From the NCBI RefSeq assembly GCF_024734405.1, contig NZ_CP059556.1, forward strand, positions 1,426,001 through 1,490,000: 64,000 nt of DNA. Direction: 5' to 3'. The notes under the pieces are model-generated. The model worked only from the letters and a program-made list of their open reading frames with translations, was not told the origin of the DNA and searched no databases. Positions 11,946 through 50,744 of the stretch are shown piece by piece; the first letter of the stretch is position 1, and each line of letters starts with the position of its first letter. The stretch comes from Saccharopolyspora gregorii (lineage in GTDB: Bacteria; Actinomycetota; Actinomycetes; Mycobacteriales; Pseudonocardiaceae). The translations under genes were made by a program, and so were the position numbers.

Positions 11946-11981
11946 GCTTGGGGGGTCGTGGTCGTTTTGCTCGGGGGGCGG

Positions 11982-20525: not shown

Positions 20526-20570
20526 CGTTCGAACGCCGCCGTCGAGCGCGGGAACCGATGACCGCGCGAG

Positions 20571-20598
20571 AACGGCCCACCCGGGCTGGTGGGCCGTT
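20571..20598. terminator. Bidirectional terminator between cobA and metG
   Basis: AACGGCCCACC pairs perfectly with GGTGGGCCGTT around a six-base loop, between convergent stops. Confidence 0.85.
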
Positions 20599-20618
20599 CG
20601 TGGCGTCGTCCGCGCGGG

Positions 20619-22337: not shown

Positions 22338-22708
22338 TCGAGAATGCTCCAATAGCGTTGTTTCGGTGCAGACCCCGCTGAATCCGGCCGACGCCGGCGC
22401 GCGCATGGGTGCTGACGAACACCGTTGACCAGGGAGATGCTACCGGCACGGGATCGTCGGCACGGCTCGCCCTCGCCCGGCCGGACGCGGTCCGCGAGGG
22501 GGTCGTCCGGCCGGGCGGGTGCTGGTCACCGCACGGGGGAGGACGGTGCGCCGGGCTGCTCGATCTCCCAGGTCGCCGAGGTCGGCGACGAACCGGTCGC
22601 GGCCGTCGCCGGTGCGGGACGTGCGCGAGGTGCTGGCCGGTGCGCCTCCCGGTCGCCGTCCCCGGGGCCCGTTCGACCGCTGGCCGAACGGGCCGTTCCG
22701 GGTCGGGA
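22338..22708. other. Intergenic region upstream of metG
   Basis: About 370 bases without a coding frame of native character. It holds a hairpin at 22476-22515 (CCCGGCCGGAC with GTCCGGCCGGG) of unknown role in the metG leader zone, and a terminator at 22666-22694 for the upstream reductase. Confidence 0.5.
22666..22694 (-). terminator. Terminator of the flavin reductase gene
   Basis: GGCCCGTTCG pairs perfectly with CGAACGGGCC, 15 bases past the reductase stop codon on the minus strand. Confidence 0.65.
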
Positions 22709-23944
22709 TCAGGCGGGGACGGCCTCCAGCGCGGCGACGGCCTCGTCCCACGGCCGCGGGTCGGCGACCAGGGTCCGGAGCGCGCGGGTGGGTTTCGGGG
22801 GCACACCGATGGTGAGCGCCCCGCAGGCCGTGCTGCCACGGCGGTAGAGGGCCGCGGCCTTCGGCGCCGCCGGATCGGCGCCGTCGAGCACGCGCAGCCG
22901 CACCTCGTCCGGTTCGGCCAGGTCGCCGAACGCCTGCACCTTGAACCGGTACTGGTCGGACCAGAAGTACGGCACCGGGGCGAACGGGCTCCGCTCCCCG
23001 AAGCGTTCCGGCGCCAGTTCGGCCAGCAGGTTCCGCGCGGCCGCCATGCCCTGCTCGGTGGCGTTCATCCGGTGCTCCACCCGGACCGGGCGGCCCAGCA
23101 CCGGGTGCGGCCAGCGCGCCACGTCCCCGGCCGCGTAGACACCGGGGGCCGCCGCGCAGAACTCGTCGCAGCCGACGCCGTCGGCGAGGTCCAGCCCGCT
23201 GCCCGCGAGCCAGTCCACCGATGGTGTGGAGCCGATCGCGACCAGCACCGCGTCCCCGGTGATCTCCTCGCCACCGGCCAGCCGCACGCCGCGGGTGCGG
23301 CCCTCGTCGTGGACGAGCCCGGCGACGGATTCGCCGAGCCGCAGCTCGACGCCGTGCGCCCGGTGCGCGGCGGCCAGCAGCGCGCCCGCCTCGGTGCCGA
23401 TGGCGCGTTCCATCGGCACCGGTTCCGGCGCGACCAGCACCACTTCGTGCCCGAGTTCGCGGGCGACCGCGGCGACCTCGACGCCGAGCACCCCGGCACC
23501 GACGACGACCAGCCGCCGCCCGGGGAACGCCAGCGGTGCGCGCAGCGCCAGCGCGTCGTCGAGGGTGCGCAGCACGTGCGCCCCCGGCGACTGCTCCGGC
23601 AGCGCGCGGGCAGCGACACCGGTCGCGATGATCACCCCGTCGCAGTCCAGCGCGTCCGCGCCGAGCAGCACCCGGCGATCGGCCACGTCCAGCCCGGTCG
23701 CCCGGGTTCCCAGCCGCAGGTCCAGGTCGAGCCCGTCGAGCGCGTCGGCGGCGCGCAGCCCGGTGCGGTCCGGTTCCCACGCGCCGGACAGCACCTGCTT
23801 GGACAGCGGCGGCCGGTCGTAGGGCAGGTGCGGTTCCGCGCCGACCAGCGCGATCTCCCCGTCCCAGCCGCTGCGGCGCAGCTGCTCCGCCGCGGTGAGC
23901 CCGGCGGCGGAGGCGCCGATCACCGCGATGCGCCCGGCGCTCAT
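22709..23944 (-). CDS. FAD-dependent ferredoxin reductase-like oxidoreductase
   Basis: This 411-residue pyridine nucleotide-disulfide oxidoreductase family member transfers electrons from NAD(P)H to a small iron-sulfur protein. The FAD site is IAVIGASAAGLTAAEQL near residue 6, the NAD site VVVGAGVLGVEVAAVARE near 143, and the second FAD motif VYAAGDVARWP near 265. A C-terminal reductase domain follows (ERSPFAPVPYFWSDQY). This matches rubredoxin/ferredoxin reductases that serve cytochromes P450 or dioxygenases. Its ATG overlaps the stop of the preceding 42-codon ferredoxin remnant (ATGA), so its natural partner seems to have been that ferredoxin. Confidence 0.92.
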   Translation of the reverse strand: MSAGRIAVIGASAAGLTAAEQLRRSGWDGEIALVGAEPHLPYDRPPLSKQVLSGAWEPDRTGLRAADALDGLDLDLRLGTRATGLDVADRRVLLGADALDCDGVIIATGVAARALPEQSPGAHVLRTLDDALALRAPLAFPGRRLVVVGAGVLGVEVAAVARELGHEVVLVAPEPVPMERAIGTEAGALLAAAHRAHGVELRLGESVAGLVHDEGRTRGVRLAGGEEITGDAVLVAIGSTPSVDWLAGSGLDLADGVGCDEFCAAAPGVYAAGDVARWPHPVLGRPVRVEHRMNATEQGMAAARNLLAELAPERFGERSPFAPVPYFWSDQYRFKVQAFGDLAEPDEVRLRVLDGADPAAPKAAALYRRGSTACGALTIGVPPKPTRALRTLVADPRPWDEAVAALEAVPA

Positions 23945-24069
23945 CCGCGGGCCCGGATCGCCGCTGCCGGGCACCCGGCCGCGGCCGCCCGGCCCGTCTC
24001 GTGCACCTCGGGCGGGGGTGTGCTGTCCAGCAGCACCACGACGCCGTTCTCCTCGATCGTGATCTCCAT
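23941..24069 (-). pseudogene. N-terminally truncated ferredoxin, coupled to the reductase
   Basis: A 42-codon frame starts with ATG at 24069, after AAGGAAG, and ends in an ATGA overlap with the reductase. Residues from about 8 on (ENGVVVLLDSTPPPEVHE, then AAAAGCPAAAIRA) match the C-terminal half of P450-type 3Fe-4S/4Fe-4S ferredoxins, including the final cluster cysteine of CPA. The N-terminal half with the other cluster cysteines is missing: an in-frame TAA lies four codons upstream, and no Cys-rich sequence is found in other frames up to 24188. It probably arose by internal deletion, keeping start, ribosome site and coupling. It cannot bind a cluster alone. Confidence 0.65.
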
Positions 24070-24147
24070 GCTTCTTCCTTACCCCTCGACGGGTTCCGGC
24101 GTCACCACGGGATGCGAAGCGGCTTGGACCACCTCTGGATGTCAGGG

Positions 24148-24190
24148 GAGCGGCCCGCTCGACCAGTGCCACGGGGAGAACGGGCCGCTC
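24148..24190 (-). terminator. Hairpin at the end of the AlkZ-like gene
   Basis: GAGCGGCCCG pairs perfectly with CGGGCCGCTC, overlapping the stop codon of the minus-strand gene at 24189. The loop is 23 bases. Confidence 0.55.
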
Positions 24191-25280
24191 ACCTGGGGAG
24201 GTGCACGTCGTCGTGCTGTCCGGCCGAGAGGAACAGCGCGAGCTCCCGGCCCTCGTCGGCGACGGCGGACCGTTCGGCGGCGGTGAGGCGGCGCAGCGGA
24301 TCGACCCGCAGCGCGTCCGCCTCCGCCCGCCAGGTTCCCGCGACCCGGCCGTCGACCAGCACCACCCGCTCGCCCGCCACGGACAGGCCGCGGTGCTCGT
24401 CGGCCACGATCCGGCTCCGGTCGTGGTAGCCGAGGAGCGCGTTGTCGAACGCGGGCAGGAACCGCACCGGTGCGGGCACGTCCGGGTCGGGGCGCGGTGC
24501 GTCCGGCAGGTCGAGCAGCTCGCGGCCCCGCTCGTCGCGGAACGACACCAGTTCCGGGCGAAGCTCGGCCACCGCGCCCGGCAGCCCGGCGAGCCCCGAC
24601 CAGGCGCGCACGTCGGCGGTCGCCGCCGGGCCGAACGCGGCCAGGTAGCGGCGCACCAGCTCCCGCCCCACCGGATCGGAACCCGGCGGCGACGGCGGGT
24701 CGACCTCGCGACCCAGCCAGTCCGCGAGCGGCACCACCCGCACCCCGCCACCGCTGCGCCACAACCCGCGCGGCGGGAGCTGCACCGCTGGGACCAGCGC
24801 CGCCACCAGCACTTCGCCCAGCGCGCGCCGGGACGGGCCCGGCCAGCGGTCGGTGAGCTCCGCCGCCAGCTCCGCCATCGCGCGCGGTTCGCCGTCGGCC
24901 AGCACCGCCCGGCCCGCCGCGGCCAGCTCGTCCAGGTCGATCCCGTCGAAGTCGCGGCGGTAGGCCGCGAGGCCGCGCTGCCGCAGCATCGCGTCGTGCC
25001 GGGACCGCCAGCCGAGCGCGTCCTCGGCGGTGAGCAGGTGCACGGTGCGGCGCATCAGGTGCGTGCGCACCAGCCGCCGCCGCACCAGCAGGTCGGAGAG
25101 CTCTCCGGGGTCGAATCCGCGCAGCCGGGCGAACAATCCCGCGAACGGGGCCTGCGGTTCCTGCGCCTGCATACCGCACAGGTGGGCCACGGCCCCGGCC
25201 ACCGGCAGGTCGGCGCGGTCCAGCAGCAGTTGCCGGGCGAGCGTCGCGCGGTTGAGCGCGCGGGTTCCGAGGACGGTCAT
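24189..25280 (-). CDS. AlkZ-like winged-helix DNA-binding protein (HTH_42)
   Basis: This 363-residue protein belongs to the winged-helix HTH_42 family that includes the DNA glycosylase AlkZ. The N-terminal region carries GMQAQEPQAPF near residue 36, the Q-x-Q motif used by AlkZ for excision of alkylated or crosslinked bases. It is followed by LVRTHLMRRTVHLL and, in the C-terminal half, the tandem winged-helix segment ending FDNALLGYHDR and EADALRVDPLRRL. Many relatives in actinomycetes protect against self-made DNA-damaging products, but most are housekeeping or uncharacterised. It is 25 bases downstream of the DinB gene on the same strand. Confidence 0.82.
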   Translation of the reverse strand: MTVLGTRALNRATLARQLLLDRADLPVAGAVAHLCGMQAQEPQAPFAGLFARLRGFDPGELSDLLVRRRLVRTHLMRRTVHLLTAEDALGWRSRHDAMLRQRGLAAYRRDFDGIDLDELAAAGRAVLADGEPRAMAELAAELTDRWPGPSRRALGEVLVAALVPAVQLPPRGLWRSGGGVRVVPLADWLGREVDPPSPPGSDPVGRELVRRYLAAFGPAATADVRAWSGLAGLPGAVAELRPELVSFRDERGRELLDLPDAPRPDPDVPAPVRFLPAFDNALLGYHDRSRIVADEHRGLSVAGERVVLVDGRVAGTWRAEADALRVDPLRRLTAAERSAVADEGRELALFLSAGQHDDVHLPR

Positions 25281-25305
25281 CTCGTGTCCTGTTCGCGGGA
25301 GGGGA

Positions 25306-25866
25306 TCAGAAGCCGCGGCGGCCGTCGATGGTCTCCCGCAGGATGTCGGCGTGCCCGGCGTGCTGGGTGGTCTCGGCGATCACGTGGATCAGCACCCGGC
25401 GCGCGCTGCGCACCTCGCCCGGCGGGTTCCACGGCACCTCCGGCAGCGGGTGCGCGACGTCCAGGTCGGGCAGCGCGGACACGACCTCCGCGGTGCGCGC
25501 GGCGACCTCCTGGTAGCGGGCGAGGACGTCGGCGAGGGTGTCGCCGGGCCGCATCCGGAAATCCTCCTGGAACTCGACCATGCGCTGCGGCAGCGTCGTC
25601 GCCGTCCCCGCCATCAGGTCCTCCCAGGTGACGCCGTCGGGCAGTTCGACGGCCATCGCGGCGGTGCCTTCGAGGATGAAGCGCACCCAGTTGCGCTCCA
25701 CGGACGTCACGTGCTTGATCAGACCGCCCAGGCACAGCTCGCTGACCGTCGGCCGCAGCCCGAGCTGCTCGTCGTCCAGCCCGTCGGTGGTGGTGATCAG
25801 CGCCGTGCGGGCGGCGTCGAGCTCGGCGAGCAGGTCGGCGCGCTCGGCGTCGAGGGTGGTGGTCAC
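25306..25866 (-). CDS. DinB-family (DUF664) protein
   Basis: This 186-residue four-helix protein of the DinB/DUF664 superfamily has the early segment ERADLLAELDAARTALI, then CLGGLIKHVTSVERNWV with the family's conserved histidine near residue 50, and near the end RVLIHVIAETTQHAGHADILRE, whose histidines would complete a metal site. Actinobacterial members are suspected mycothiol-dependent transferases, but substrates are unknown. The GTG start at 25866 follows GGAAGGA. It is transcribed divergently from a WYL regulator across a region with a strong palindrome, and it heads a likely two-gene unit with the AlkZ-like protein. Confidence 0.88.
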   Translation of the reverse strand: MTTTLDAERADLLAELDAARTALITTTDGLDDEQLGLRPTVSELCLGGLIKHVTSVERNWVRFILEGTAAMAVELPDGVTWEDLMAGTATTLPQRMVEFQEDFRMRPGDTLADVLARYQEVAARTAEVVSALPDLDVAHPLPEVPWNPPGEVRSARRVLIHVIAETTQHAGHADILRETIDGRRGF

Positions 25867-25907
25867 GGTGGTCCTTCCGGTCGTGCTTCGTCGTCGTGGG
25901 CCCCACC

Positions 25908-25940
25908 TTGACACCGGTAGCGGACAGGGTGCGTCCGCTA
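25908..25940. promoter_or_regulatory. Operator (8-7-8 inverted repeat) with TTGACA box between DinB and WYL genes
   Basis: TAGCGGAC (25918-25925), AGGGTGC, and GTCCGCTA (25933-25940) form a perfect inverted repeat, 20 bases before the WYL regulator start and 52 bases before the DinB start. TTGACA lies at 25908-25913. It is the likely binding site of the adjacent regulator. Confidence 0.7.
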
Positions 25941-25959
25941 CTCCGGGCACGATGGGGTC

Positions 25960-26967
25960 GTGCCGAAGACCTCCGCGCGGTTGCTGTCGTTGCTGTCCCT
26001 GCTGCAGGCCCGCCGGGACTGGCCGGGCGCGCTGCTCGCCGAACGCCTCGACGTCAGCCCGCGCACGGTGCGCCGCGACGTGGACCGGTTGCGGGAGCTC
26101 GGTTATCCGATCGCGGCGAGCAAGGGGCCGGACGGCGGTTACCGGCTGGGCGCGGGCAGCGAATTGCCGCCGCTGCTGTTCGACGACGACCAGGCCGTGG
26201 CGCTCACCCTCGCGCTCCAGCTCGCCGGCACCTCGGGGGCGGGGCTGGAGGAGGCGGCGCAGCGCGCGCTGCACACCATCCGCCAGGTGCTGCCCGCCCG
26301 GCTGCGGCACCGCGTGGACACGGTCCGGGTGACCGCGGTTCCGCAGCCGGAGGCGCGGGTGCGGGTGGAGCGCGGCGTGCTGGTGGCGCTCAGCGCCGCG
26401 GTGCACGCCCGCGAAGAGCTGCGCTTCGACTACCTGCACCCGAGGCGGGAGGGACCGCCGCGGCGGGTGCAGCCGCACCACCTGATCACCTGGGGCGGGC
26501 GTTGGTACCTGGTGGCGTGGGACCTGGACCGGGCGGACTGGCGCACCTTCCGCGCCGACCGGATCGCACCCCGCACACCGACCGGCCCGCGCTTCGCGCC
26601 GCGCGAGGTGCCCGGGGGCGACGTGGCGCGGTTCGTCACCGAGAAGTTCCGGGGCGCGCAGGGCTGGCCGTGCCGCGGGGAGGTGGTGCTGCACCGGCCG
26701 GCGGAGGAGGTCGCCGAGTTCCTGTCGGACGACCTGGTGGAACCGCTCGACGAGGGGCGCTGCCGGTTGCTGGCCGGTTCCTGGTCGTGGTCCGGGCTGG
26801 CGGCGGCGATCGCGCGGTTCGGGGTGGACTTCGAGGTGGTCGGGCCGCCGGAGCTGCGCGCCGCGGTCGCCGACCTGGGGCGCCGCTGCGCGGCGTCGAT
26901 CGACCAGCCACCGGCGGCATCGCCACCGGCGGCGGACGTCCCGTCGAGGAGAGCGCCGAAGTCGTGA
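25960..26967 (+). CDS. YafY-type HTH/WYL-domain transcriptional regulator
   Basis: This 335-residue regulator has an N-terminal DeoR-like winged helix (about residues 5-60: RLLSLLSLLQARRDWPGALLAERLDVSPRTVRRDVDRL, read in two parts). A WYL domain (about 140-215) follows, with HHLITWGGRWYLVAWDLDR and the conserved FRADRI, then a C-terminal WCX extension near 230-320. WYL proteins respond to nucleic acid or small ligands and often control stress genes. It is divergent from the DinB gene, with a palindrome between the starts, which suggests autoregulation and control of the DinB/AlkZ-like pair. The GTG start is at 25960. Confidence 0.9.
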   Translation: MPKTSARLLSLLSLLQARRDWPGALLAERLDVSPRTVRRDVDRLRELGYPIAASKGPDGGYRLGAGSELPPLLFDDDQAVALTLALQLAGTSGAGLEEAAQRALHTIRQVLPARLRHRVDTVRVTAVPQPEARVRVERGVLVALSAAVHAREELRFDYLHPRREGPPRRVQPHHLITWGGRWYLVAWDLDRADWRTFRADRIAPRTPTGPRFAPREVPGGDVARFVTEKFRGAQGWPCRGEVVLHRPAEEVAEFLSDDLVEPLDEGRCRLLAGSWSWSGLAAAIARFGVDFEVVGPPELRAAVADLGRRCAASIDQPPAASPPAADVPSRRAPKS

Positions 26968-27067
26968 CCCGGACGGCCACCACCGGGCCGGACGGTCCCA
27001 CCGGCCGGACGGCGAGCTCGGCTGGTGACCCCGCGAGCCGGGGCCACCACCGAGGCCGTCCGTGGTG

Positions 27068-27259
27068 TCAGCGGTCGTAGCGCCCGGTCTTCACCGCGGT
27101 GAGGAACTCGGACCACCGCGGAAGATCGGTGAGCAAGTACCCGGCCGCGCGATTCTTGGTGTCGCGGATGGCGGCACGGCCGTCCGCGCGCCCGATCTCG
27201 ACGCAGTTGGTCTGGTTGCCGCTGTAGCTCGATTTCCGCCAGCGGAAGGCCTTGCTCAT
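27068..27259 (-). CDS. DUF397 protein
   Basis: This 63-residue protein has the family hallmark FRWRKSSYSGNQTNCVEIGR, then AIRDTKNRAAGYLL and WSEFL. DUF397 proteins pair with XRE/DUF5753 regulators in actinobacteria and are proposed to act like antitoxin or modulator partners; this is not settled. Its ATG overlaps the stop of the upstream regulator by four bases, so the two are cotranslated. Confidence 0.93.
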   Translation of the reverse strand: MSKAFRWRKSSYSGNQTNCVEIGRADGRAAIRDTKNRAAGYLLTDLPRWSEFLTAVKTGRYDR

Positions 27260-28098
27260 TTCTCTTTCTCCATCTGATCGGTGATCTCAGCGACGAGAGC
27301 CGCCGAGGCTTCGCGGCTCATCGCCATCCCGCGAAGTCTCTCGGCTGCGTTCCGGTAGTCCTGCACGTCCTTGGCATCGGTGATGGTCGTACTGGAGCGG
27401 TAGTGCTCGAGGTGCACCACCGGCTTGTCCCGATTGAACTCGATCAGCACGAACGGGCCTTCGAGCGCGGGCGAATATCCGCCGCCGAGCGGCAGGACCT
27501 GGACCTCGACGTTGTCCCGCTGAGCCCACTCCGCGAGATGTCGGAGTTGTTCGACCATCACGGCGGGTTCGCACGGCGGATAGCGGAGGGCGTGTTCACC
27601 GATGATCGCGTTCAAGGTGACCGGTGTGCGGCGGCTGAGCACATCTCGGCGCCCCAGTCGATAGGTCACGCGCTTGTCCGCTTCGCCGCGGGTGGCGCCC
27701 GCTCCGAGCATGATCGAACGTGCGTAGTTCCCGGTCTGCAGCAGTCCTGGGATGAGCAGTGGTTCGACATCGGTGATGCGCTGCGCGGTGCGCTCGTACT
27801 CGGTCAGCACGGTCAGCTGTTTGCCGACTCCTGGCGCTACCCAGTTCGGATCTCCGGCATCCCGGGCGAGTTGCAGCAAGCGTTCGCGCTCGTCGCCGGT
27901 GACGCCGAGGATTCCCAGCACGGCGCCGACATCGGCCTCGCGCGGCGTCAGTTTGCCGTTCTCCCAACGGGAAACATGGGTGTGGCTTCGCCCGAGCCGA
28001 GTTCCCAGTTCGCTGGTGGACAACCCTGCTGCTTTGCGCGCTGCGCGTAGCTCCGCTCCGAGCTGTCGCGCTCGAGGTGTGTCAGCTGTGCTGGGCAT
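27256..28098 (-). CDS. XRE-family regulator with DUF5753
   Basis: This 280-residue protein has a helix-turn-helix at about residues 10-65 (LGAELRAARKAAGLSTSEL and RSHTHVSRWENGKL), then DUF5753 (about 90-275: EPLLIPGLLQTGNYAR, VVHLEHYRS). It is coupled to DUF397 by ATGA. The ATG at 28098 is preferred over a TTG two codons upstream because AGGA sits at the correct distance. Its base composition is lower in GC than its neighbours. It is divergent from a small Cys-rich gene across a symmetrical regulatory region with repeated TGCACAA motifs. Confidence 0.92.
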   Translation of the reverse strand: MPSTADTPRARQLGAELRAARKAAGLSTSELGTRLGRSHTHVSRWENGKLTPREADVGAVLGILGVTGDERERLLQLARDAGDPNWVAPGVGKQLTVLTEYERTAQRITDVEPLLIPGLLQTGNYARSIMLGAGATRGEADKRVTYRLGRRDVLSRRTPVTLNAIIGEHALRYPPCEPAVMVEQLRHLAEWAQRDNVEVQVLPLGGGYSPALEGPFVLIEFNRDKPVVHLEHYRSSTTITDAKDVQDYRNAAERLRGMAMSREASAALVAEITDQMEKEK

Positions 28099-28215
28099 GC
28101 ACAAATCCTAGCCAGAGCCCTGTCCCGCTCCCGCTTCACCCGAAGGAGATCTTGGCATTTGTGCATGCACAAGTTTATGGTTCTTGCACAAGCGGGAGCG
28201 GGATGGCGACAACGA
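28099..28215. promoter_or_regulatory. Symmetric divergent control region with TGCACAA repeats
   Basis: A 14-base inverted repeat (TCCCGCTCCCGCTT at 28123-28136, AAGCGGGAGCGGGA at 28190-28203) brackets the centre of the region. Inside is a perfect palindrome TTGTGCATGCACAA (28159-28172) and a further TTGCACAA at 28185-28192. A third TGCACAA (28098-28104) overlaps the regulator start. The three shared heptamers are the obvious binding sites for the adjacent XRE regulator. Confidence 0.65.
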
Positions 28216-28443
28216 ATGGAACGATCGATGGCACGGGTGTTCATGGCCTCGGAGCGGGAATCGGTGTGGCACGTGGTGGAGCTGCGCACCGGTGGCGCAC
28301 GGCCGATCGCCCGCTGCGGCCACGTGATCCGCGGCCGGGTGCACCGCCGCCTCGGCTGCCCGGAGCGGCCGCGCGGGATGTGCGACCCGTGTGCTTCGGA
28401 CGTGAACGGCCGAGAACCGCGCCCCACGCCGGAGGTCTCCTGA
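28216..28443 (+). CDS. Small Cys-containing protein divergent from XRE regulator
   Basis: This 75-residue protein begins with ATG at 28216 (ATG 28228 is possible). Cysteines in RCGH, GCPERPRGMC and DPC could bind zinc. Small proteins of this kind are frequently seen next to DUF5753/DUF397 pairs in Pseudonocardiales; no function is known. The GGGATGG sequence about 10 bases upstream could serve as ribosome site. It shares the symmetric control region with the regulator at 27256. Confidence 0.6.
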   Translation: MERSMARVFMASERESVWHVVELRTGGARPIARCGHVIRGRVHRRLGCPERPRGMCDPCASDVNGREPRPTPEVS

Positions 28444-28578
28444 GATTTCCAGCAGGCCCTCGGTGCCGACCGCCCGAGGGCCGGGCCGGTCCGCGTCCCC
28501 GACCCCCGACCGGGCGTGGACCGGTTCCCGGCCGGGTCGCCCTGCGCCCCTCCCCGAGCGCGGTGGCCCGGCCGGACC

Positions 28579-28613
28579 CCGGTGGCGGGCGGAGCACCTC
28601 CGCCCGCCACCGG
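28579..28613. terminator. Strong bidirectional terminator, 16-bp stem
   Basis: CCGGTGGCGGGCGGAG pairs perfectly with CTCCGCCCGCCACCGG around CAC. It lies between the convergent genes ending at 28443 and 28630. Confidence 0.88.
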
Positions 28614-28629
28614 ACGACCCCGTGGCGGA

Positions 28630-29568
28630 TCAGGCGGTGTTGACGGAGGTCTCCATCGGGGCGCCGCGCCATGCGACGGAGTCGCGGAGGGCGGCGGCGA
28701 TGTCGGGGGCGGTGCCGGTCAGGTCGGCGTAGGCGCGGTGCAGGTTCGCGACGATGCGCTCGGCGTCGGCCCAGTCCGCGAACTCGCCGAGGTCGGCTTC
28801 CTGCGCGGCCCGCAACGGCGGGATCCCGGCGTCCGCCCCGGACTTCGCGAGGTCCAGCACCAGCCGGTAGTAGCGCTCGTGCTCGGCGAGCACGCCCGGC
28901 AGGTCCGCGGCCTCGATCACCGGCCCGTGCCCGGGCACCACGCGCTGCGGCTCGAACTCGGCGATCCAGTTCAGCGCCCGCGCCGCGCCCGCCGGCGAAC
29001 CCATGAACACCAGCGGAGTGAGCCCGTGGAACAGCAGATCGCCGCTGAACAGCACGCGCTCCTCCGGCAGCCAGGCCACCACGTCGCCGCCGGTGTGCGC
29101 CGCGTGCCCGGGGTGGCGCAGCTCGACGGTGCGGCCACCGACGTGCACCGACAGCTCGGACCGGAAGGTCACCGACGGCACGCGCCGCACCACGTTCCCC
29201 CAGTCCGGGACGGGCGACCAGAACGGCGGGCAACCGTCGATCATCGGGTCGGCCGCCAGCGCGGCCCGCATGTGCTCGTGTCCGAACAGGACGGTCTCGG
29301 CGGGCAGCAGCGAGTTGCCGTAGGAGTGGTCGCCGTGCTCGTGGGTGTTCACCGCCCACCGGATCGGCGAATCCGGTGCGGTGCGGGCGATCTCGGCCAG
29401 GAACCGGCGGGTGCGCTGCTCGGTGGCGCAGGTGTCCACGACGAGCAGCCCGTCGTCCCCCGAGATCACCCCGGCGTTGTTCACCCACCAGGTCCCGTCC
29501 GGCTGCACCCACGCCCACACCCCGTCGGCGAGCGGTTCGAGGCGGGGCTGCGCGTCGTTCGTGTGCAT
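28630..29568 (-). CDS. MBL-fold metallo-hydrolase
   Basis: This 312-residue metallo-beta-lactamase-fold enzyme has the metal motif HEHGDH at residues 76-81 (the H-x-H-x-D-H pattern), a following metal histidine in HPGHAAHTGGD, an aspartate in FSGDLLF, and a last histidine in VVPGHGP. A C-terminal helical extension (about 235-305) resembles that of quinoprotein-relay or lactonase-like MBL proteins. The substrate is unknown. The ATG at 29568 is chosen by the position of the first beta-strand; residues encoded further upstream are not domain-like. No signal peptide, so cytosolic. Confidence 0.9.
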   Translation of the reverse strand: MHTNDAQPRLEPLADGVWAWVQPDGTWWVNNAGVISGDDGLLVVDTCATEQRTRRFLAEIARTAPDSPIRWAVNTHEHGDHSYGNSLLPAETVLFGHEHMRAALAADPMIDGCPPFWSPVPDWGNVVRRVPSVTFRSELSVHVGGRTVELRHPGHAAHTGGDVVAWLPEERVLFSGDLLFHGLTPLVFMGSPAGAARALNWIAEFEPQRVVPGHGPVIEAADLPGVLAEHERYYRLVLDLAKSGADAGIPPLRAAQEADLGEFADWADAERIVANLHRAYADLTGTAPDIAAALRDSVAWRGAPMETSVNTA

Positions 29569-29741
29569 GCGAGCAGTGTGCACCGGCGGCCCGAGTCCGT
29601 CCCGACCCGTCTCCGGGCGGGTTCGTGGGGGGAAGGCCGCTGCAGTACCCGGCACGCGCGGAATTCGTCCGGTCACCCGGCGTCCGGCTCTACGCTCCGA
29701 TTTCCCGGCCAGGTGAGCCGGACAGGTGAGGAGGCCGTGTC

Positions 29742-30068
29742 GTGCAGGTGAAGAAGTTCCTCGGTGCGCTGGTGCTGGCGGGCGGTGTCGCGGTGGCGGC
29801 CCCGGCGGTGGCGCTGGCGGCGGACCCGCCGCCGGACCAGACCGTCCCCGGCAATGGCGACGCCGACGAGACCACGCCCGGTTCCGGCGGTACCAGCGAC
29901 GGCACCGTGCCCGGCTCGGGCGGGGTGGGCACGATCGCCCTGGCGCAGGGCGACGGCGGTTCCGGCATCGGCGACAGCGGCGGCGGTTCCGGCATCGGCA
30001 ACAGCGGTGACGACACCGGCTCGGGCATCGGCGACAGCGGCGGCGGCTCGGGCATCGGCCAGAGCTGA
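29742..30068 (+). CDS. Small secreted Gly/Ser-rich repeat protein
   Basis: This 108-residue precursor has a clean signal peptide (KKFLGALVLAGGVAVAAP, cleavage near ALA-AD, about residue 26). The mature part is low-complexity, with TTPGSGGT/TVPGSGGV repeats and then three copies of a GSGIGDSG-type octapeptide. There are no cysteines and few hydrophobic residues, so it is probably disordered or cell-wall associated. The GTG start at 29742 follows GAGGAGG. It resembles nothing characterised; short secreted repeat proteins of this type could be surface or aerial-mycelium components, which is a guess. Confidence 0.72.
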   Translation: MQVKKFLGALVLAGGVAVAAPAVALAADPPPDQTVPGNGDADETTPGSGGTSDGTVPGSGGVGTIALAQGDGGSGIGDSGGGSGIGNSGDDTGSGIGDSGGGSGIGQS

Positions 30069-30083
30069 CCCGATCGCCCGCGC

Positions 30084-30123
30084 GGAACGGCCCGCCCGAC
30101 CGTCCGGTCGGGCGGGCCGTTCC
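30084..30123 (+). terminator. Terminator with perfect 18-bp stem
   Basis: GGAACGGCCCGCCCGACC pairs perfectly with GGTCGGGCGGGCCGTTCC around GTCC, 16 bases after the secreted peptide gene. Confidence 0.88.
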
Positions 30124-30142
30124 GTCCTCGATGGGGAGAGGT

Positions 30143-30179
30143 CAGGACCCCTGCGGCCCGTCCTCCAGGTCGCCTTCGG
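30143..30179 (-). repeat. Remnant of the cobN 3' end (direct repeat copy 1)
   Basis: On the minus strand this reads EGDLEDGPQGS then TGA, matching the last residues of CobN (EGDLEDGPQKS then TGA). Positions 30151-30179 are identical over 29 bases to 32573-32601. Beyond 30179 the similarity stops. It lies 2.4 kb from the real cobN end, in the same orientation. Confidence 0.9.
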
Positions 30180-30350
30180 CACCGGGAAACCACCTCTTCG
30201 GTCGTCCGCGCGGGATCGCGCGGGTGACTGGGGTCCGTTCAGGAAGTCCTCGATGAGATCGTCGAATCCGCCTCGCACCGGCTCGTTGGTCTCTTACGGT
30301 ACCTGTCACGGGGTGTGGTCCCGTGTACGCGGAGAAAAGGGGGTGCGGTT

Positions 30351-30664
30351 TTGGACTGGGAAGAGTTGCGGCGCACGGCTGATGCTCTTGATGAGCAGGC
30401 CGGCTGATTCGCGAAGCCCGAGAAGAGCAGGAGACGCTGCGGTTCCGCGGCTCGTCGGAGAGCGGAGTCGCGACCGCGACCTGCACCGGAAGAGGCGCTC
30501 TGCTCGAACTCGACATCCGAGCCGGTGCGCTCGCTTCGAGTCGACCCGAGATGATTTCGCGCGACCTGGTGGAGTCCATCCAAGCTGCGCGCCGGTCGGC
30601 TGGTGAGGCGGTCGGCGAACGGCTCCAGCAGCTAGCGCCAGGATTCACCTCGGAGGCCGAGTGA
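30351..30664 (+). pseudogene. Frameshifted YbaB/EbfC-like gene
   Basis: A TTG (or later) start at 30351 after AAGGGGG opens a frame reading DWEELRRTADALDEQAG, which hits TGA at 30405. In the next frame from about 30398 the protein continues RLIREAREEQ, TATCTGRGALLELDI, and ISRDLVESIQAARRSAGEAV to TGA 30664. Together they form a complete YbaB/EbfC-like protein of about 104 residues. One missing base, or loss of one CCGG unit in the GCCGGCTG stretch near 30399-30406, explains the break. The TGA overlaps the ATG of the next YbaB gene, so coupling would be lost on the first frame. Sequencing error or programmed frameshift are alternatives. Confidence 0.7.
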
Positions 30665-30951
30665 TGCAGGAGATCGAGGACCTGGTCGCTGAGATCGGTC
30701 GGCGCACCGAAGAAGTGGCGGAGGTCGGGAGGTCGCTCTCAGAACGACGAATATCAGTTGATGTTCCAGGGGGGATCGGCACCGTCTCCGTGAGCGGTCA
30801 CGGTCAGTTGATCGACATCGAGCTCGATCGGGAGAACCTCTGGCGTACCAACGAATCGTCGCTCGGTCGGCTCGTCGTAGACGCGCTCGCGGACGCCGAA
30901 CGGCAGGCTGCCGAATTGCGCGAACGCGATTTCCAGAACGGTCAGGGGTGA
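30664..30951 (+). CDS. YbaB/EbfC-family nucleoid-associated-like protein
   Basis: This 95-residue protein has an N-terminal helix (EDLVAEIGRRTEEVAEVGRS), a central beta segment (ISVDVPGGIGTVSVSG, IDIELD), and a C-terminal helix (LGRLVVDALADAERQAAEL). This is the alpha-beta-alpha plan of YbaB/EbfC DNA-binding proteins. In Pseudonocardiales such genes often precede WXG-type secretion genes instead of dnaX/recR. The ATG at 30664 overlaps the preceding stop (TGATG). The stop overlaps the next start (GTGA). Its role in this module is unknown. Confidence 0.75.
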   Translation: MQEIEDLVAEIGRRTEEVAEVGRSLSERRISVDVPGGIGTVSVSGHGQLIDIELDRENLWRTNESSLGRLVVDALADAERQAAELRERDFQNGQG

Positions 30952-31265
30952 GCGGCGTGGCCGGGTTCGACGTGGTGATCGAGGCATTACGCGGGAACGT
31001 GATGTTCTTGCAGGAGGCCCAGGACAGCTGGGAAGAGGCGCACAACAAGGTCAAGGGGAAGACCTTGGAGGAGGACGACCTCGGCCTCTTGGGGAAGCAG
31101 GGCGACATTCCCGGTGCTTACAACGGCGCTGCGGAGAACCTCTTCGCCGGCCTGTTGAAGGGTGTCGAGAACCTGGGGAAGGCGGCCGCTTCCCTGCGTG
31201 CGGTGGTCGACGACCAGGCCGAACGCGAAGAAGAGATCGAAGCAGAGCTGCGGAAGACCCAGTAG
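30948..31265 (+). CDS. EspC-like (type VII secretion target family) protein
   Basis: This 105-residue, almost entirely helical protein resembles the EspC/DUF2580-type small helical partners of ESX (type VII) substrates: an N-terminal helix from FDVVIEALRG, a middle DIPGAYNGAAENLFAGLLKGVENL, and a charged C-terminal helix. The GTG start overlaps the upstream stop. Codon 14 is TTA (30987-30989), very rare in such genomes and a possible developmental (bldA-type) control point. No ESX core genes (EccC, MycP) are in the window. Confidence 0.6.
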   Translation: MSGVAGFDVVIEALRGNVMFLQEAQDSWEEAHNKVKGKTLEEDDLGLLGKQGDIPGAYNGAAENLFAGLLKGVENLGKAAASLRAVVDDQAEREEEIEAELRKTQ

Positions 31266-31278
31266 GAGGTGGTGCAGC

Positions 31279-31935
31279 ATGACGGCAGCGTTGACTGCGT
31301 TCCCTGATCGGGAAGCCGCCATCGTCGTCGAGTACGCCGAGAAGACCGGACGGTACGTGATCGTCCGGGTCATCGATGAGATCCGTGACTGGCTCGGCCA
31401 TCCCGAGGTGGTCATGGATATCGCCCAGGCCTGGTCTCCCGCTGCCAAGGCAGGTCTGCTGCACGCCGACGACACCATCGTCGAGGCGCGCACGTCCATC
31501 AGCGGAAACTGGTCCGGGCCGGCGGCCACCAGCTATCTGACCTACTTGGATCACGTTTCCAAGGTGATGCTGGCGACCGGTGAGCTGTTCGACGAGTTCT
31601 CCGGGAAGATGCTCGACATCCGGCAGCACATCACCGACGCCTACAAGGAGGCGATCGGCATCATCGGCAACACCGGGGCGGAGATCCTGAGCATGACCGG
31701 TGGGATCGTCGCCGGTGCGAAGGAGTTGCTCTTCGGGGTGGCGGACGCCGTGCTCGAGGCGTTGGCGAACTTCCTGCGGCTGATCACCTCGACGGCGCAG
31801 AACATCGTGCAGATCATGACGGATTTCCAGCGCAGCGGGCTGGAACTCGCGCAGCGGGCGGCAGATCTGCAGATCCCGGAGGCATTGCCGTCGGTGGTCG
31901 CGGATTCCGGGAACTGGAAGGCGGGGTCCGCATGA
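31279..31935 (+). CDS. WXG100-like putative type VII secreted protein
   Basis: This 218-residue alpha-helical protein carries the WXG turn in SISGNWSGPAATSYLTYLDH (near residue 75), between two long helices. It continues with DIRQHITDAYKEAIGII and hydrophobic helices (about 130-190) containing TGGIVAGAKELLFGVAD. WXG proteins are exported by ESX systems as helical hairpins; the longer C-terminal part recalls actinobacterial WXG/PPE-like effectors. The ATG at 31279 follows AGGAGGTGG. It overlaps the lipoprotein gene (ATGA). The base composition is less GC-rich than the genome. Confidence 0.7.
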   Translation: MTAALTAFPDREAAIVVEYAEKTGRYVIVRVIDEIRDWLGHPEVVMDIAQAWSPAAKAGLLHADDTIVEARTSISGNWSGPAATSYLTYLDHVSKVMLATGELFDEFSGKMLDIRQHITDAYKEAIGIIGNTGAEILSMTGGIVAGAKELLFGVADAVLEALANFLRLITSTAQNIVQIMTDFQRSGLELAQRAADLQIPEALPSVVADSGNWKAGSA

Positions 31936-32504
31936 TCGGGGCCTGGCAGCGGGGTATCGGGGTCGCTGCTCTGCTGGTGTGCGCGGCGGGATGCGCGAGC
32001 AACCCGGGAACCGACCCGGCGAACGACGAGTTCCAGGAATCCCCGGAGGCGTGCTCGTTGCTGACCACGCAGGCGGTCGGAGACGCGCTCGGCGCCCCGC
32101 AGGTCACTCCGGAACCAGCGGGGAACGGGTGCACCTGGTCGTTCCGGGGTGCAGCGGAAATCGGACCGGGGCCGGCGTTGCGGACCCTTTCAGTGCGGAA
32201 CACCGTGCACCGCAGCAACGGCGAGACCTCCGGCTCGGATCTCGCGCTCGCGGCGGTGCAGCGGGCCGGGCGGGATTCCGGTGGGCGGATGCAGGGCATC
32301 AGCGGAGTCGGCGACGCCGGGGTTCGCGGATCGGCCGCGGGAAGCGCGGAGTACGTGTTCGCCGTCGGCAACATCAGCGTCGCGCTCACCGTCGAAGGCC
32401 AGGACTTCGACGGTGCGAACGCGCAGCCGATCCCCGCGGACGCGGCGAGCCGGGCGGGCTCGCGGATCGGCCAGCAGATCACGACGGCGCTGCGCCGGGG
32501 CTGA
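31932..32504 (+). CDS. DUF3558 lipoprotein
   Basis: This 190-residue precursor has a type II signal peptide whose lipobox ends in AAGC, with lipidated Cys21. The body has the DUF3558 pattern: SPEACSLLTTQAVGDALGAP, then NGCTWSF, with two cysteines likely disulfide-linked, and VFAVGNISVALTV near the end. DUF3558 lipoproteins are exported envelope proteins of mycobacteria and Pseudonocardiales with no known activity. The ATGA overlap couples it to the WXG gene, suggesting a shared surface function. Confidence 0.88.
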   Translation: MIGAWQRGIGVAALLVCAAGCASNPGTDPANDEFQESPEACSLLTTQAVGDALGAPQVTPEPAGNGCTWSFRGAAEIGPGPALRTLSVRNTVHRSNGETSGSDLALAAVQRAGRDSGGRMQGISGVGDAGVRGSAAGSAEYVFAVGNISVALTVEGQDFDGANAQPIPADAASRAGSRIGQQITTALRRG

Positions 32505-32518
32505 CCGGGTCTTCCAGG

Positions 32519-32550
32519 GGCCCGTCCGCCGGATTTCCGGCGGACGGGCC
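32519..32550. terminator. Bidirectional terminator between DUF3558 gene and cobN
   Basis: GGCCCGTCCGCCGG pairs perfectly with CCGGCGGACGGGCC around ATTT. It lies between convergent genes. Confidence 0.88.
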
Positions 32551-32563
32551 GCTCACCCGGCGG

Positions 32564-35500
32564 TCAGCTCTTCTGCGGCCCGTCCTCCAGGTCGCCTTCG
32601 GTCTGCAGGTAGATCTCGTGCAGGGCGGTGATCGTCTCCGGGTTCGGGGACTCCCACATGTTCCGGTTCGCCGCTTCCAGCAGGCGTTCCGCGATGCCGT
32701 GCAGCGCCCACGGGTTGGACTCGGTGAGGAACTTCTGGTTCTCCTCGTCCAGCACGTAGGTCTCGGCGAGCTTCTCGTACATCCAGTCGCCGACGACACC
32801 GGTCGTGGCGTCGTAGCCGAACAGGTAGTCCACGGTGGCGGCCAGTTCGAACGCGCCCTTGTAGCCGTGCTTGCGCATCGCGGCGAGCCAGCGCGGGTTC
32901 ACCACGCGGGCGCGGAACACCCGCGAGGTCTCCTCGGTCAGCGAGCGGGTCCGGATGGCGTCCGGGCGGCTGCTGTCGCCGATGTAGGCCGCCGGTGCCT
33001 TGCCGGTCAGCGCGCGCACCGTGGCGATCATGCCGCCGTGGTACTGGAAGTAGTCGTCCGAGTCGGCGATGTCGTGCTCGCGGGTGTCGACGTTCTTCGC
33101 CGCCACCGAGATCCGCTTGTAGGCGGATTCCATGTCGCCGCGTGCCTCGGTGCCCTCCAGGCCGCGGCCGTAGGCGTAGCCGCCCCACACCGCGTACACC
33201 TCGGCGAGGTCGGTGTCGTCGCGCCAGTTCTTGCTGTCCATCAGCGGCAGCAGGCCGGCCCCGTAGGCGCCGGGCTTCGAACCGAAGATGCGCGTGGTGG
33301 CGCGGCGTTCGTCGCCGTGCCCGGCCAGGTCGGCCTGCGCGTGGGCGCGCACGAAGTTCTGCTCGTGCGGCTCGTCGAGCGCGGCGACCTTGCGGACCGC
33401 GTCGTCGAGCAGCGTCACCACGTGCGGGAACGCGTCGCGGAAGAACCCGCTGATGCGCACCGTCACGTCCACCCGCGGGCGGCCCAGCTCGTCGAGCGGG
33501 ATCACTTCGAGCCCGTTGACGCGCCGCGACGCCTCGTCCCAGGTGGGCCGGACGCCCAGCAGCGCCAGCACTTCCGCGATGTCGTCACCGGAGGTGCGCA
33601 TCGCCGAGGTGCCCCACACCGACAGGCCCACCGAACGCGGGTACTCGCCGGTGTCGGCGAGGTAGCGCTCGATCAGCGAATCGGCGATGGCGTGCCCGGT
33701 CTCCCAGGCGAGCCTGCTCGGCACCGCCTTCGGGTCCACCGAGTAGAAGTTCCGGCCCGTCGGCAGCACGTTGATCAGGCCGCGCAGCGGGGAACCGCTC
33801 GGGCCCGCGGGCACGTAGCCGCCGTCGAGGGCGTGCAGCGTCGCGGTCATCTCGTCGGTGGTGGCGTCCAGCCGCGGCACCACCTCGGTGACGGCGAACT
33901 CCAGCACCCGCACCACGTCGTCCGGCGCGTCGCCCAGCACCGAGCGGCACACCTCGACGACCGCGCCGAGCTCCCAGCCGCGCTCCTCCATGCCCGCGAC
34001 GAGCGCGTGCGCGGAGCTCTCCACGTCGTCCACGGTGCCGCGGGCGACGCTGCCGTCCTCCAGCATGCCCAGCGCCTCGCGCAGGCCGGGCAGGGCGCCG
34101 CTCTGGCCGCCCCACACCTGCCGGGCGCGCAGCATCGCCAGCACCAGGTTCACCCGCGCCTCCCCGGTCGGGGCGGCGCCGAGGACGTGCAGGCCGTCGC
34201 GGATCTGCGCGTCCTTGATCTCGCACAGCCAGCCGTCGACGTGCAGCAGCATGTCGTCGAACTCGGCCTCGTGCGGGCGCTCGTCCAGACCGAGGTCGTG
34301 GTCGAGCTTCGCGGCCTGCATCAACGTCCAGATCTGGCTGCGGATCGCGGGCAGCTTCGCCGGGTCCATCGCCGAGATCTGCGCGTGCTCGTCGAGCAGC
34401 TGCTCCAGCTTCGCGATGTCGCCGTAGCTCTCCGCGCGCGCCATCGGCGGCACCAGGTGGTCCACCAGCGTCGCGTGCACCCGGCGCTTCGCCTGGGTGC
34501 CCTCGCCCGGGTCGTTGACCAGGAACGGGTACACCAGCGGCAGGTCCGCCAGCGCCGCGTCCGGTGCGCAGGACGCCGACATGCCCGCGGTCTTGCCGGG
34601 CAGCCACTCCAGGTTGCCGTGCTTGCCGAGGTGCACCATCGCGTGCGCGCCGAACTCGTCGGTCATCCAGCGGTAGGCGGCCAGGTAGTGGTGGCTCGGC
34701 GGCAGGTCCGGGTCGTGGTAGATCGCGATCGGGTTCTCGCCGAAGCCGCGCGGCGGCTGCACCACGACGACGACGTTCCCGGCGCGCAGCGCGGCCACCA
34801 CGATCTCGCCGTCCGGGTCGTGCGAGCGGTCCACGAACTGCTCGCCCGGCGGCGGGCCCCAGTGCTGCTCGACGCTCTCCCGCAGGTCCTGCGGCAGCGT
34901 GGCGAACCAGTCGGCGTAGCGCTTCGCGGGGATGCGCACCGGGTTGCCGGACAGCTGCTCCTCGGTCAGCCAGTCCGGGTCCTGGCCACCGGCGGCGATC
35001 AGCGCGTGCACCAGCGCGTCGCCGTCCTGCGCGGCCACGCCGGGCAGCGCGTCCGGGCCGTCCTCCGGGCCGATGTCGTAGCCGGCCTCGCGCAGCCGCC
35101 GCAGCAGGCCCACCGCGCTCGCCGGGGTGTCCAGGCCGACGGCGTTGCCGATCCGGGAGTGCTTCGTCGGGTACGCCGACAGCATCAGCACCAGGCGCTT
35201 GTCCGCGGCGGGCACGTGCCGCAGCCGCGCGTGCTTCACCGCGATCCCGGCGACGCGGGCCGCGCGCTCCGGGTCGGCGACGTACACCGGGAGGCCTTCG
35301 GCGTCGTTCTCCTTGAACGAGAACGGCACCGTGATCAGGCGGCCGTCGAACTCGGGCACCGCGACCTGGGTGGCCATGTCCAGCGGGGACAGGCCCTCGT
35401 CGTTGTCCTCCCACGCCTCGCGGCTGGAGGTCAGGGTGAGGCCCTGCAGGATCGGCACGTCCAGCGCGGCGAGCGCGCCCACGTCCCACGCCTCGTCGTC

Positions 35501-36178
35501 ACCACCGGCCGAGGCCGTCGCCGGCTTCGTGCCGCCCGCGGCCAGCACCGTCACGATCAGCGCGTCCGCCTCGCGCAGCGTGTCCAGCAGACCCGGCTCC
35601 GGGGCGCGCAGCGAGGCGCAGAACACCGGCAGCGCCTGGCCGCCCGCGTCCTCGATCGCCTCGGACAGGGCGTGCGCGAACGCGGTGTTGCCCGCCATGT
35701 GGTGCGCGCGGTAGTAGAGCACCGCGACCTTCGGACCCTCGGTCCGGCGCGGGGTGCGCTCCAGCAGGCCCCACTTCGGCGTCTCCACCGGCGGTTCGAA
35801 GCCGTGGCCGGTGAGCAGCACCGTGTCGGACAGGAAGTTGAACAGCTGCGCCAGGTTCTCCGGCCCGCCCTGCGCGAGGTAGCCGTGCGCCTGCGAGCAG
35901 ACGCCGCCGGGCACCGTGGAGCACTCCATCAGCTCGGCGTCCGGGGCCTGCTCACCGCCGAGCACCACGACCGGGCGCGGTCCGGCGAGCAGCGCGTCCA
36001 AGCCCTCCTCCCACGCGCGGCGGCCGCCGAGCAGCCGCACCACCACGAGGTCGGCGCCCTCCAGCAGCGGCGGCAGGTCGTCCACGCCGAGCCGAGCCGG
36101 GTTGCCGAGGCGGAAGTCCGCACCGCTGGCGCGTGCGCTGAGCAGATCGGTGTCCGATGTGGACAGCAGCAGGATCAT
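32564..36178 (-). CDS. cobN: Cobaltochelatase large subunit CobN
   Basis: This 1204-residue subunit binds hydrogenobyrinate a,c-diamide and cobalt in the ATP-dependent late cobalt insertion step. Full family length is present. Landmarks include VLYYRAHHMAGNTAF near residue 155, PTKHSRIGNAVGLDTP near 345, the conserved MVHLGKHGNLEWLPGK near 525, and, in the C-terminal third, FGSKPGAYGAGLL and YFQYHGGMIATVRAL. The AAA+/vWA partner is the fused ChlID protein at 9641. The ATG at 36178 overlaps the stop of a 17-codon leader ORF (ATGA), itself just below a B12 riboswitch, so translation depends on the leader. Confidence 0.96.
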   Translation of the reverse strand: MILLLSTSDTDLLSARASGADFRLGNPARLGVDDLPPLLEGADLVVVRLLGGRRAWEEGLDALLAGPRPVVVLGGEQAPDAELMECSTVPGGVCSQAHGYLAQGGPENLAQLFNFLSDTVLLTGHGFEPPVETPKWGLLERTPRRTEGPKVAVLYYRAHHMAGNTAFAHALSEAIEDAGGQALPVFCASLRAPEPGLLDTLREADALIVTVLAAGGTKPATASAGGDDEAWDVGALAALDVPILQGLTLTSSREAWEDNDEGLSPLDMATQVAVPEFDGRLITVPFSFKENDAEGLPVYVADPERAARVAGIAVKHARLRHVPAADKRLVLMLSAYPTKHSRIGNAVGLDTPASAVGLLRRLREAGYDIGPEDGPDALPGVAAQDGDALVHALIAAGGQDPDWLTEEQLSGNPVRIPAKRYADWFATLPQDLRESVEQHWGPPPGEQFVDRSHDPDGEIVVAALRAGNVVVVVQPPRGFGENPIAIYHDPDLPPSHHYLAAYRWMTDEFGAHAMVHLGKHGNLEWLPGKTAGMSASCAPDAALADLPLVYPFLVNDPGEGTQAKRRVHATLVDHLVPPMARAESYGDIAKLEQLLDEHAQISAMDPAKLPAIRSQIWTLMQAAKLDHDLGLDERPHEAEFDDMLLHVDGWLCEIKDAQIRDGLHVLGAAPTGEARVNLVLAMLRARQVWGGQSGALPGLREALGMLEDGSVARGTVDDVESSAHALVAGMEERGWELGAVVEVCRSVLGDAPDDVVRVLEFAVTEVVPRLDATTDEMTATLHALDGGYVPAGPSGSPLRGLINVLPTGRNFYSVDPKAVPSRLAWETGHAIADSLIERYLADTGEYPRSVGLSVWGTSAMRTSGDDIAEVLALLGVRPTWDEASRRVNGLEVIPLDELGRPRVDVTVRISGFFRDAFPHVVTLLDDAVRKVAALDEPHEQNFVRAHAQADLAGHGDERRATTRIFGSKPGAYGAGLLPLMDSKNWRDDTDLAEVYAVWGGYAYGRGLEGTEARGDMESAYKRISVAAKNVDTREHDIADSDDYFQYHGGMIATVRALTGKAPAAYIGDSSRPDAIRTRSLTEETSRVFRARVVNPRWLAAMRKHGYKGAFELAATVDYLFGYDATTGVVGDWMYEKLAETYVLDEENQKFLTESNPWALHGIAERLLEAANRNMWESPNPETITALHEIYLQTEGDLEDGPQKS
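32573..32601 (-). repeat. Direct repeat copy 2 (authentic cobN 3' end)
   Basis: These 29 bases, inside the last codons of cobN, are identical to 30151-30179. Both copies read on the same strand and flank the type VII-like module. Confidence 0.92.
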
Positions 36179-50709: not shown

Positions 50710-50744
50710 GGCCGCGCCTGCTGCTTCTGCTGCCCAGTGCTGGG

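What the first reader, a model, noticed from the sequence alone, without database searches (positions are those of the whole stretch)
30143..32601. A 29-bp piece of the cobN 3' end is duplicated and brackets a type VII-like module
Positions 30151-30179 and 32573-32601 are identical, in the same orientation, and both encode the CobN C-terminus (EGDLEDGPQ) with a following Ser and stop codon. Between them lie five small genes of lower GC content: frameshifted YbaB, YbaB, EspC-like, WXG-like, DUF3558. A strong hairpin terminator lies just outside the first copy and another just inside the second. This is the layout left when an element integrates at a gene 3' end and restores it. No integrase is visible, so it may be a new kind of cargo, a satellite, or a scar.
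Basis: partly seen in the sequence, partly recalled or inferred. Interest (0 to 1): 0.75.

Follow-up and report, generated by a model that had tools for sequence, protein, structure and literature searches.

The report
Gene-end duplication scar beside acquired cassette
A small set of secretion-related genes was probably acquired next to a vitamin-B12 gene, and a leftover copy of that gene's tail marks the far edge of the insertion; this looks like a one-off recombination scar, not a new mobile element.

Summary
An exact 29-bp direct repeat (30151-30179 = 32573-32601; 36 of 40 bp when extended) carries the cobN 3' end in both copies, each with a stop codon. Between them lies a five-gene cassette: broken YbaB, YbaB, EspC-like, WXG-like, DUF3558-like. 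In all 5 other held species of the genus, cobN has one 3' end and no cassette beside it. Among 297 family genomes only this one has two cobN-end matches within 10 kb. The cassette is real and patchy, with relatives in other genera; in one genus it is present or absent at the same site. It was therefore probably acquired here.

An integrase is not favoured: none among 20 neighbouring proteins scanned, no viral match for the repeat core or the WXG gene, and none of 15 other cassette loci has flanking repeats above the null median. The last ~310 bp of cobN has a different ancestry (permutation p 0.003; six control scans p 0.10-0.77) and that tract ends at the repeat. This points to ordinary recombination at the cobN end that left a displaced tail. 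One-sided recombination, a single crossover and an old integrase event cannot be told apart. No empty site with the same left neighbour was found.

The parts
30151..30179 (-). copy 1 of the repeat: displaced cobN 3'-end remnant (homology runs to about 30140, including a stop codon)
32573..32601 (-). copy 2 of the repeat: the true cobN 3' end; the 38 nt from the repeat to the stop are identical to the cobN end of same-genus genome G002
30083..30124 (.). strong perfect hairpin between the secreted-peptide gene and copy 1; similar sequences occur elsewhere in four of the six genomes of the genus
32519..32550 (.). strong hairpin between the DUF3558-like gene and cobN
30180..30350 (.). left edge of the acquired segment; only short matches (about 50 bp at most) in 296 other family genomes
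30351..30664 (+). first YbaB-like gene, frame-broken here; open in four relatives of another genus
30664..30951 (+). second YbaB/EbfC-like gene (PF02575)
30948..31265 (+). EspC-like small protein (7 of 14 aligned members touch PF10824 at E up to 0.05; the window member does not)
31279..31935 (+). WXG100-like protein of 218 aa
31932..32504 (+). DUF3558-like protein (below Pfam cut-off) with an N-terminal Cys conserved in 6 of 6 aligned members, probable lipoprotein
32564..36178 (-). cobN (PF02514), intact
32602..32911 (-). 3' tract of cobN with different ancestry, ending at the repeat (boundaries approximate, set after looking)
29742..30068 (+). small Gly/Ser-rich protein with signal-like N-terminus, left neighbour; no relative found

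Best explanation
The five genes are a horizontally acquired chromosomal cassette linked to type VII secretion. A DNA fragment that carried a cobN 3' end, its hairpin and the cassette came from a related bacterium. It recombined with the resident cobN 3' end by the cell's own machinery: homologous pairing within the cobN tail, with the other end joined to the old cobN tail. The intact cobN now ends in copy 2. The displaced last ~40 bp of the old tail survive as copy 1 on the far side of the cassette. Shown: the repeat, single ends in relatives, absence of the cassette beside cobN in the genus, its presence elsewhere, and a mosaic tract in cobN that ends at the repeat. Inferred: the order of events, which copy is the older, the fragment's source, and host recombination instead of an integrase. 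What the genes do (YbaB-like chaperones plus EspC/WXG-like secreted partners plus a lipoprotein, served by the host's own type VII machinery) is inferred from families alone.
For: Repeat and unequal last two codons of the copies. Single cobN end in 5 of 5 same-genus species. Cassette genes not beside cobN in those 5; the EspC-like gene has no match in the 5; the WXG-like gene only weak hits in 2 of 5. Cassette order conserved in loci of other genera, best 58-60% identity in one genus. In that genus a cassette-free species (1 of 6 fetched) has the same neighbours about 180 bp apart. The last ~310 bp of cobN departs from its closest relatives at 22 of 26 informative sites against 104 of 294 before it; best split at alignment site 3281, permutation p 0.003; six control scans on three sister sequences gave p 0.10-0.77. 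No integrase or transposase family among 20 neighbouring proteins scanned. Three EccC genes over cut-off in the genome. Analogous one-sided recombination with displaced gene 3' ends is proposed for Vibrio T6SS modules (PMC5361080, passages).
Against: No relative with one cobN end and the same left neighbour was found, so no true empty site is shown. The mosaic tract boundaries were chosen after seeing the data; other short stretches of cobN (around alignment 900-1000 and 1300-1500) also look uneven; one control (G003, second coding) also had its best, non-significant split at site 3281. The final 38 nt of cobN are identical to G002's, so if the tract is donor DNA the donor must share that end. 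A single crossover or integrase inside the 29 bp would pair the flanks equally well. Homology-facilitated illegitimate recombination usually also deletes recipient DNA (PMC3240628, introduction); none is visible here.
Confidence: 0.5

Rival explanations
1. Scar of a site-specific integrating element whose attachment core is the 29-bp cobN end; the integrase was lost or acts from elsewhere.
For: Exact 29-bp identity, location at a gene 3' end, gene end restored, flanks diverge outside it. The pairing of copy 2's downstream codons with base 30180 matches an observed same-genus haplotype (G002), as a crossover inside the 29 bp would give.
Against: No integrase or transposase family among 20 neighbouring proteins scanned; no viral contig with the 24-bp core or a relative of the WXG gene; no phage match for the WXG gene; no second use of this site in 5 same-genus species or, at 3 mismatches and within 10 kb, in 296 other family genomes; none of 15 other cassette loci with flanking repeats above the null median.
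Confidence: 0.22
2. Templated filler: when the cassette's left edge was joined to the chromosome, about 30 bp were copied from the nearby cobN end during repair.
For: Copy 1 is short, single, and abuts a left edge with no long homologue.
Against: Similarity continues past the 29 bp to a matching stop codon and TGACC (7 of 11; about 1% of window 11-mers), with different codons in between, as expected of a real, diverged cobN end.
Confidence: 0.12
3. Old arrangement: cassette and duplicated end were ancestral and were lost in the other species.
For: The ~11 kb downstream of cobN holds partly different genes in the window and its relatives, so losses there are possible.
Against: Needs loss in every other held species of the genus; the 29 bp are still identical.
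Confidence: 0.06
4. Ordinary insertion followed by partial local duplication or gene conversion between two tails, with no causal link between the repeat and the insertion.
For: cobN in this genome shows uneven ancestry elsewhere too.
Against: Copy 1 lies at about the edge of the low-GC segment.
Confidence: 0.1

Closest known systems
Homology-facilitated illegitimate recombination (HFIR)
   Same: Foreign DNA anchored by homology at one end and joined illegitimately at the other; no integrase.
   Different: Described in transformable bacteria and rarely in E. coli conjugation, generally with a deletion (PMC3240628, abstract and introduction); here only anatomy, no experiment and no visible deletion.
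Vibrio cholerae T6SS effector-immunity module displacement
   Same: New module enters at a conserved stretch and shifts an old gene 3' end downstream (PMC5361080, passages).
   Different: There the displaced genes belong to the secretion cluster itself; here the anchor is an unrelated B12 gene, and there is no array.
Integration of islands at gene 3' ends by tyrosine integrases
   Same: Direct repeat of a gene 3' end around foreign genes (recalled from general knowledge, no call).
   Different: No integrase seen, no recurrent use of the site found.
Mycobacterial ESX-1 accessory genes (EspL YbaB-like, EspC, WXG100)
   Same: YbaB-like proteins and EspC- and WXG-like small proteins; EspL is predicted to have a YbaB-type domain and is proposed as a chaperone (PMC6319747, passages).
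   Different: Two YbaB-like genes, a 218-aa WXG-like protein and a DUF3558-like lipoprotein, with no secretion machinery gene among the five.

Membership tests
Site-specific integrating element at a gene 3' end | direct repeat of the gene end flanking the insert | tested here: met
Site-specific integrating element at a gene 3' end | integrase or recombinase gene in or beside the insert | tested here: not met
   the five genes have other families or none; 20 neighbouring proteins (48 ORFs were picked) had none at E 1e-5, 8 of the 20 matching no family
Site-specific integrating element at a gene 3' end | same site used in other genomes | tested here: not met
   0 of 5 same-genus species; 0 of 296 other family genomes at 3 mismatches and within 10 kb, pattern present in 119 of 297
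Site-specific integrating element at a gene 3' end | empty site in a close relative | tested here: inconclusive
   single cobN end in 5 of 5, but left neighbours differ
Homology-facilitated illegitimate recombination | tract of homologous exchange beside the insert | tested here: inconclusive
   significant tract ending at the repeat, but boundaries post hoc and its link to the insertion inferred
Homology-facilitated illegitimate recombination | microhomology at the illegitimate junction and linked deletion | not testable with these tools
   donor and empty site unknown
Type VII secretion-associated cassette | WXG100-family protein | tested here: met
   profile of 15 members matches EsxA chains (E 2.7e-7) and 14 of 15 members touch PF06013 at E up to 0.05; the window member alone touches only WXG100_2 and DUF6507, below cut-off
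Type VII secretion-associated cassette | EspC family | tested here: inconclusive
   7 of 14 members touch PF10824, best E 0.0019; the window member does not
Type VII secretion-associated cassette | secretion machinery available | tested here: met
   three EccC genes over cut-off in the genome

The most novel reading that the evidence does not exclude
A small integrase-free cassette that spreads between related bacteria by carrying the 3' end of a conserved neighbour gene (here cobN) as its homology arm, each transfer leaving a displaced gene tail as a footprint.
Probability: 0.1. Interest if true: 0.5.

Novelty: new member of a known kind. Interest (0 to 1): 0.3.

Why it matters
It gives a readable footprint of how a small accessory cassette may enter a chromosome without an integrase, and it points to a patchy five-gene, type VII-linked cassette in this bacterial family. 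The listings of the few literature searches made here (10 of 30 papers shown, one paper each) did not show it as described. It does not reveal a new class of mobile element.

Tried and rejected
Rejected: chance repeat. Rejected: cobN end as a recurrent integration hot spot. Not supported: phage, plasmid or viral origin of the WXG gene, or viral origin of the 24-bp core. The one plasmid-collection match, 22.7% identity over 95% of the WXG protein at E 4e-11, lies on a 2.66-Mb Nocardia farcinica replicon typed non-mobilizable, with no annotation there. The other cassette genes were not searched in those collections. Rejected: anti-phage defence cassette (one PADLOC match, ZorA, E 9e-4, residues 113-196 of the WXG protein, which I read as a chance helical match). 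Led nowhere: the single-sequence structure prediction of the WXG-like protein (mean pLDDT 52, not used); the one genome-contig scan, spent on the left-neighbour lactamase-like gene, whose 80 listed loci reach 70% identity at best and gave no usable locus of the window's genus; search for the donor of the left edge (only short matches) and of the cobN tract (best 93% to G004/G005); searches on DUF3558, cobN attachment sites and type VII in Amycolatopsis gave one paper each (listings only).

Limits: 4 of 243 random window pairs in the null scored 38-41 from stretches that I did not trace, so that null shows that flanking repeats are uncommon, not impossible; it looked at 2 kb on each side. The 15 cassette loci are a part of the matches listed, and three of them come from one genome (G138). 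The query was a translation out of the cobN frame; it still landed on the cobN ends, checked with the right frame. One search looked 11-12 kb downstream of cobN in the five relatives; one search was genome-wide but only at up to 3 mismatches over 23 bases. The script stopped on an index error in its last print line, after the results cited.
Full report
What is there. The 29-bp direct repeat exists exactly as described, and its 23-bp core has only two exact copies in the 6.34-Mb genome. Read on the minus strand, both copies encode EGDLEDGPQ followed by one residue, Ser and a stop: K-S in the working cobN (copy 2), G-S in copy 1. Similarity goes on beyond the 29 bp for 7 of 11 bases, including the stop and TGACC. 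About 1.0% of the window's 11-mers match that well, and 0.16% have TGACC at that offset. Copy 1 therefore looks like the tail of a slightly different cobN allele, not a bare 29-bp copy. The two hairpins are strong. Sequences like the first one occur at other places in four of the six genomes of the genus, so it is not a private mark of the insert.

The genes between. The second YbaB-like gene passes the Pfam cut-off. The others are weak on their own: nothing for the EspC-like protein, sub-threshold WXG100_2 and DUF3558. With relatives aligned, 14 of 15 WXG-like members touch PF06013 at E up to 0.05, the window member being the exception, and the profile finds EsxA structures (E 2.7e-7). Of the EspC-like members 7 of 14 touch PF10824. 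The first YbaB gene is broken by a frame shift here, while four relatives have it open. GC is 62-67% except for the DUF3558-like gene (72.6%), against 74% for the window.

The cassette is real and patchy. The WXG-like protein has a match in 57 of 297 family genomes including the window's own; in the own genus there are two weak hits (E 4e-4 and 8e-4) and 3 of 5 other species have none. The EspC-like gene has no match in the 5 same-genus species and 3 distant hits among 59 other genomes. I fetched 15 loci with good matches in other genera, three of them from one genome. Of these, 14 of 15 have the EspC-like gene next to the WXG-like gene (not seen in L178), 12 of 15 a match to the second YbaB, and 8 of 15 a match to the DUF3558-like gene at that place, one of them at only E 0.003. 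In the genus with the best matches (58-60% identity), four species carry it beside a transporter permease. I fetched six species with the permease from that genus that did not have the cassette there; in one, G303, the permease is followed after about 180 bp by the sequence that lies right of the cassette in G292, and the other five have other DNA or no such match there. So the cassette seems to be gained or lost as a unit there too. None of the 15 has a flanking direct repeat above the null median (scores 11-14, null median 14, window 29; 4 of 243 null pairs scored 38-41, untraced).

Relatives at cobN. The 5 other held species of the genus (only 6 are held) each have a single cobN 3' end within the 11-12 kb examined and none of the cassette genes nor the secreted-peptide gene there. 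The gene content downstream of cobN differs between the window and these species and partly among them; metG was reached only in G001. G003 has a relative of the lactamase-like gene about 8 kb from cobN. In 297 family genomes a 23-base cobN-end pattern at up to 3 mismatches occurs in 119; reading the listed places, only the window genome has two within 10 kb (the next closest pairs are 3-mismatch matches on the other strand 13.7 and 18.5 kb away in G001 and G003). No empty site with the same left neighbour was found in what is held; the first 60 aa of the secreted peptide had no match in 119 other genomes.

A recombined tract in cobN. Aligned with the 5 relatives, the window's cobN is closer to G001-G003 than to G004/G005 in every 300-bp block before alignment site 3300, but in the block from 3300 it is 90-91% identical to the former and 93% to the latter. 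Counting ungapped sites where G001-G003 agree and G004-G005 agree, 22 of 26 in the tract are departures by the window sequence, against 104 of 294 before it and 0 of 5 in the last 38 nt. The best split is at alignment site 3281, permutation p 0.003 (0.004 in a first version). The same scan with G001, G002 or G003 as focus, in two codings, gave p 0.10 to 0.77; one of these six also had its best split at 3281 (p 0.61). The tract covers about 32602-32911 and ends at the repeat. The boundaries were set after looking, and other uneven stretches exist, so I treat this as suggestive. Among the matches listed, best first, none is closer to the tract than G004/G005 at 93%.

Mechanism. Two histories fit the four flanks. 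(a) One-sided homologous recombination: donor cobN tail plus hairpin plus cassette paired with the resident tail, and the other end was joined to the old tail, which became copy 1. (b) A crossover inside the 29 bp with a circle that carried a G002-like tail, by RecA or by an integrase. Under (b) the haplotype of the incoming tail (base 30180 with copy 2's last codons) is one seen in G002, but the cobN tract needs a separate event; under (a) the tract is the anchor, but both haplotypes are unseen. The absence of an integrase family among 20 neighbouring proteins (8 of which match no family), of viral hits for the core or the WXG gene and of repeats at other cassettes leans towards host recombination. 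HFIR has been reported in three naturally competent species (PMC3240628: abstract, introduction and the start of the methods seen), and displacement of gene 3' ends by incoming modules has been proposed for Vibrio T6SS loci (PMC5361080, passages seen).

Function of the cassette. The genome holds three EccC genes over cut-off, so type VII machinery is present. YbaB-like EspL is proposed as a chaperone for ESX-1 substrates in mycobacteria (PMC6319747, passages seen). By analogy the YbaB-like proteins may escort the EspC- and WXG-like proteins to export, with the DUF3558-like lipoprotein at the surface; this is inference only. With one YbaB gene broken, the copy here may be decaying.

Verdict. 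It is an informative but ordinary kind of genome scar around an under-described accessory cassette.

Noticed in passing
window 11980-12133 and 50743-50896: A dispersed 154-nt direct repeat (86% identical, with a 37-bp exact core) 38.8 kb apart, not near the finding.
   Followed up: no
window 30083-30124: The perfect hairpin left of copy 1 resembles sequences at other places in this genome and three relatives, perhaps a dispersed hairpin or terminator family of the genus.
   Followed up: partly
L177, L175, L176, L178 versus L231: The type VII-linked cassette is present in four species and absent in G303 at the same permease-side site in another genus.
   Followed up: partly
window 19281-32564: The interval from cobN towards metG/cysG holds gene content that differs from that downstream of cobN in the five relatives, a region of high gene turnover.
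   Followed up: partly
window 29742-30068: A small Gly/Ser-rich protein with a signal-like start and internal repeats; its first 60 aa have no match in 119 other family genomes.
   Followed up: no
window cobN (32564-36178), around alignment sites 900-1000 and 1300-1500: Other short stretches of cobN also show uneven ancestry, hinting at repeated recombination in this gene.
   Followed up: no
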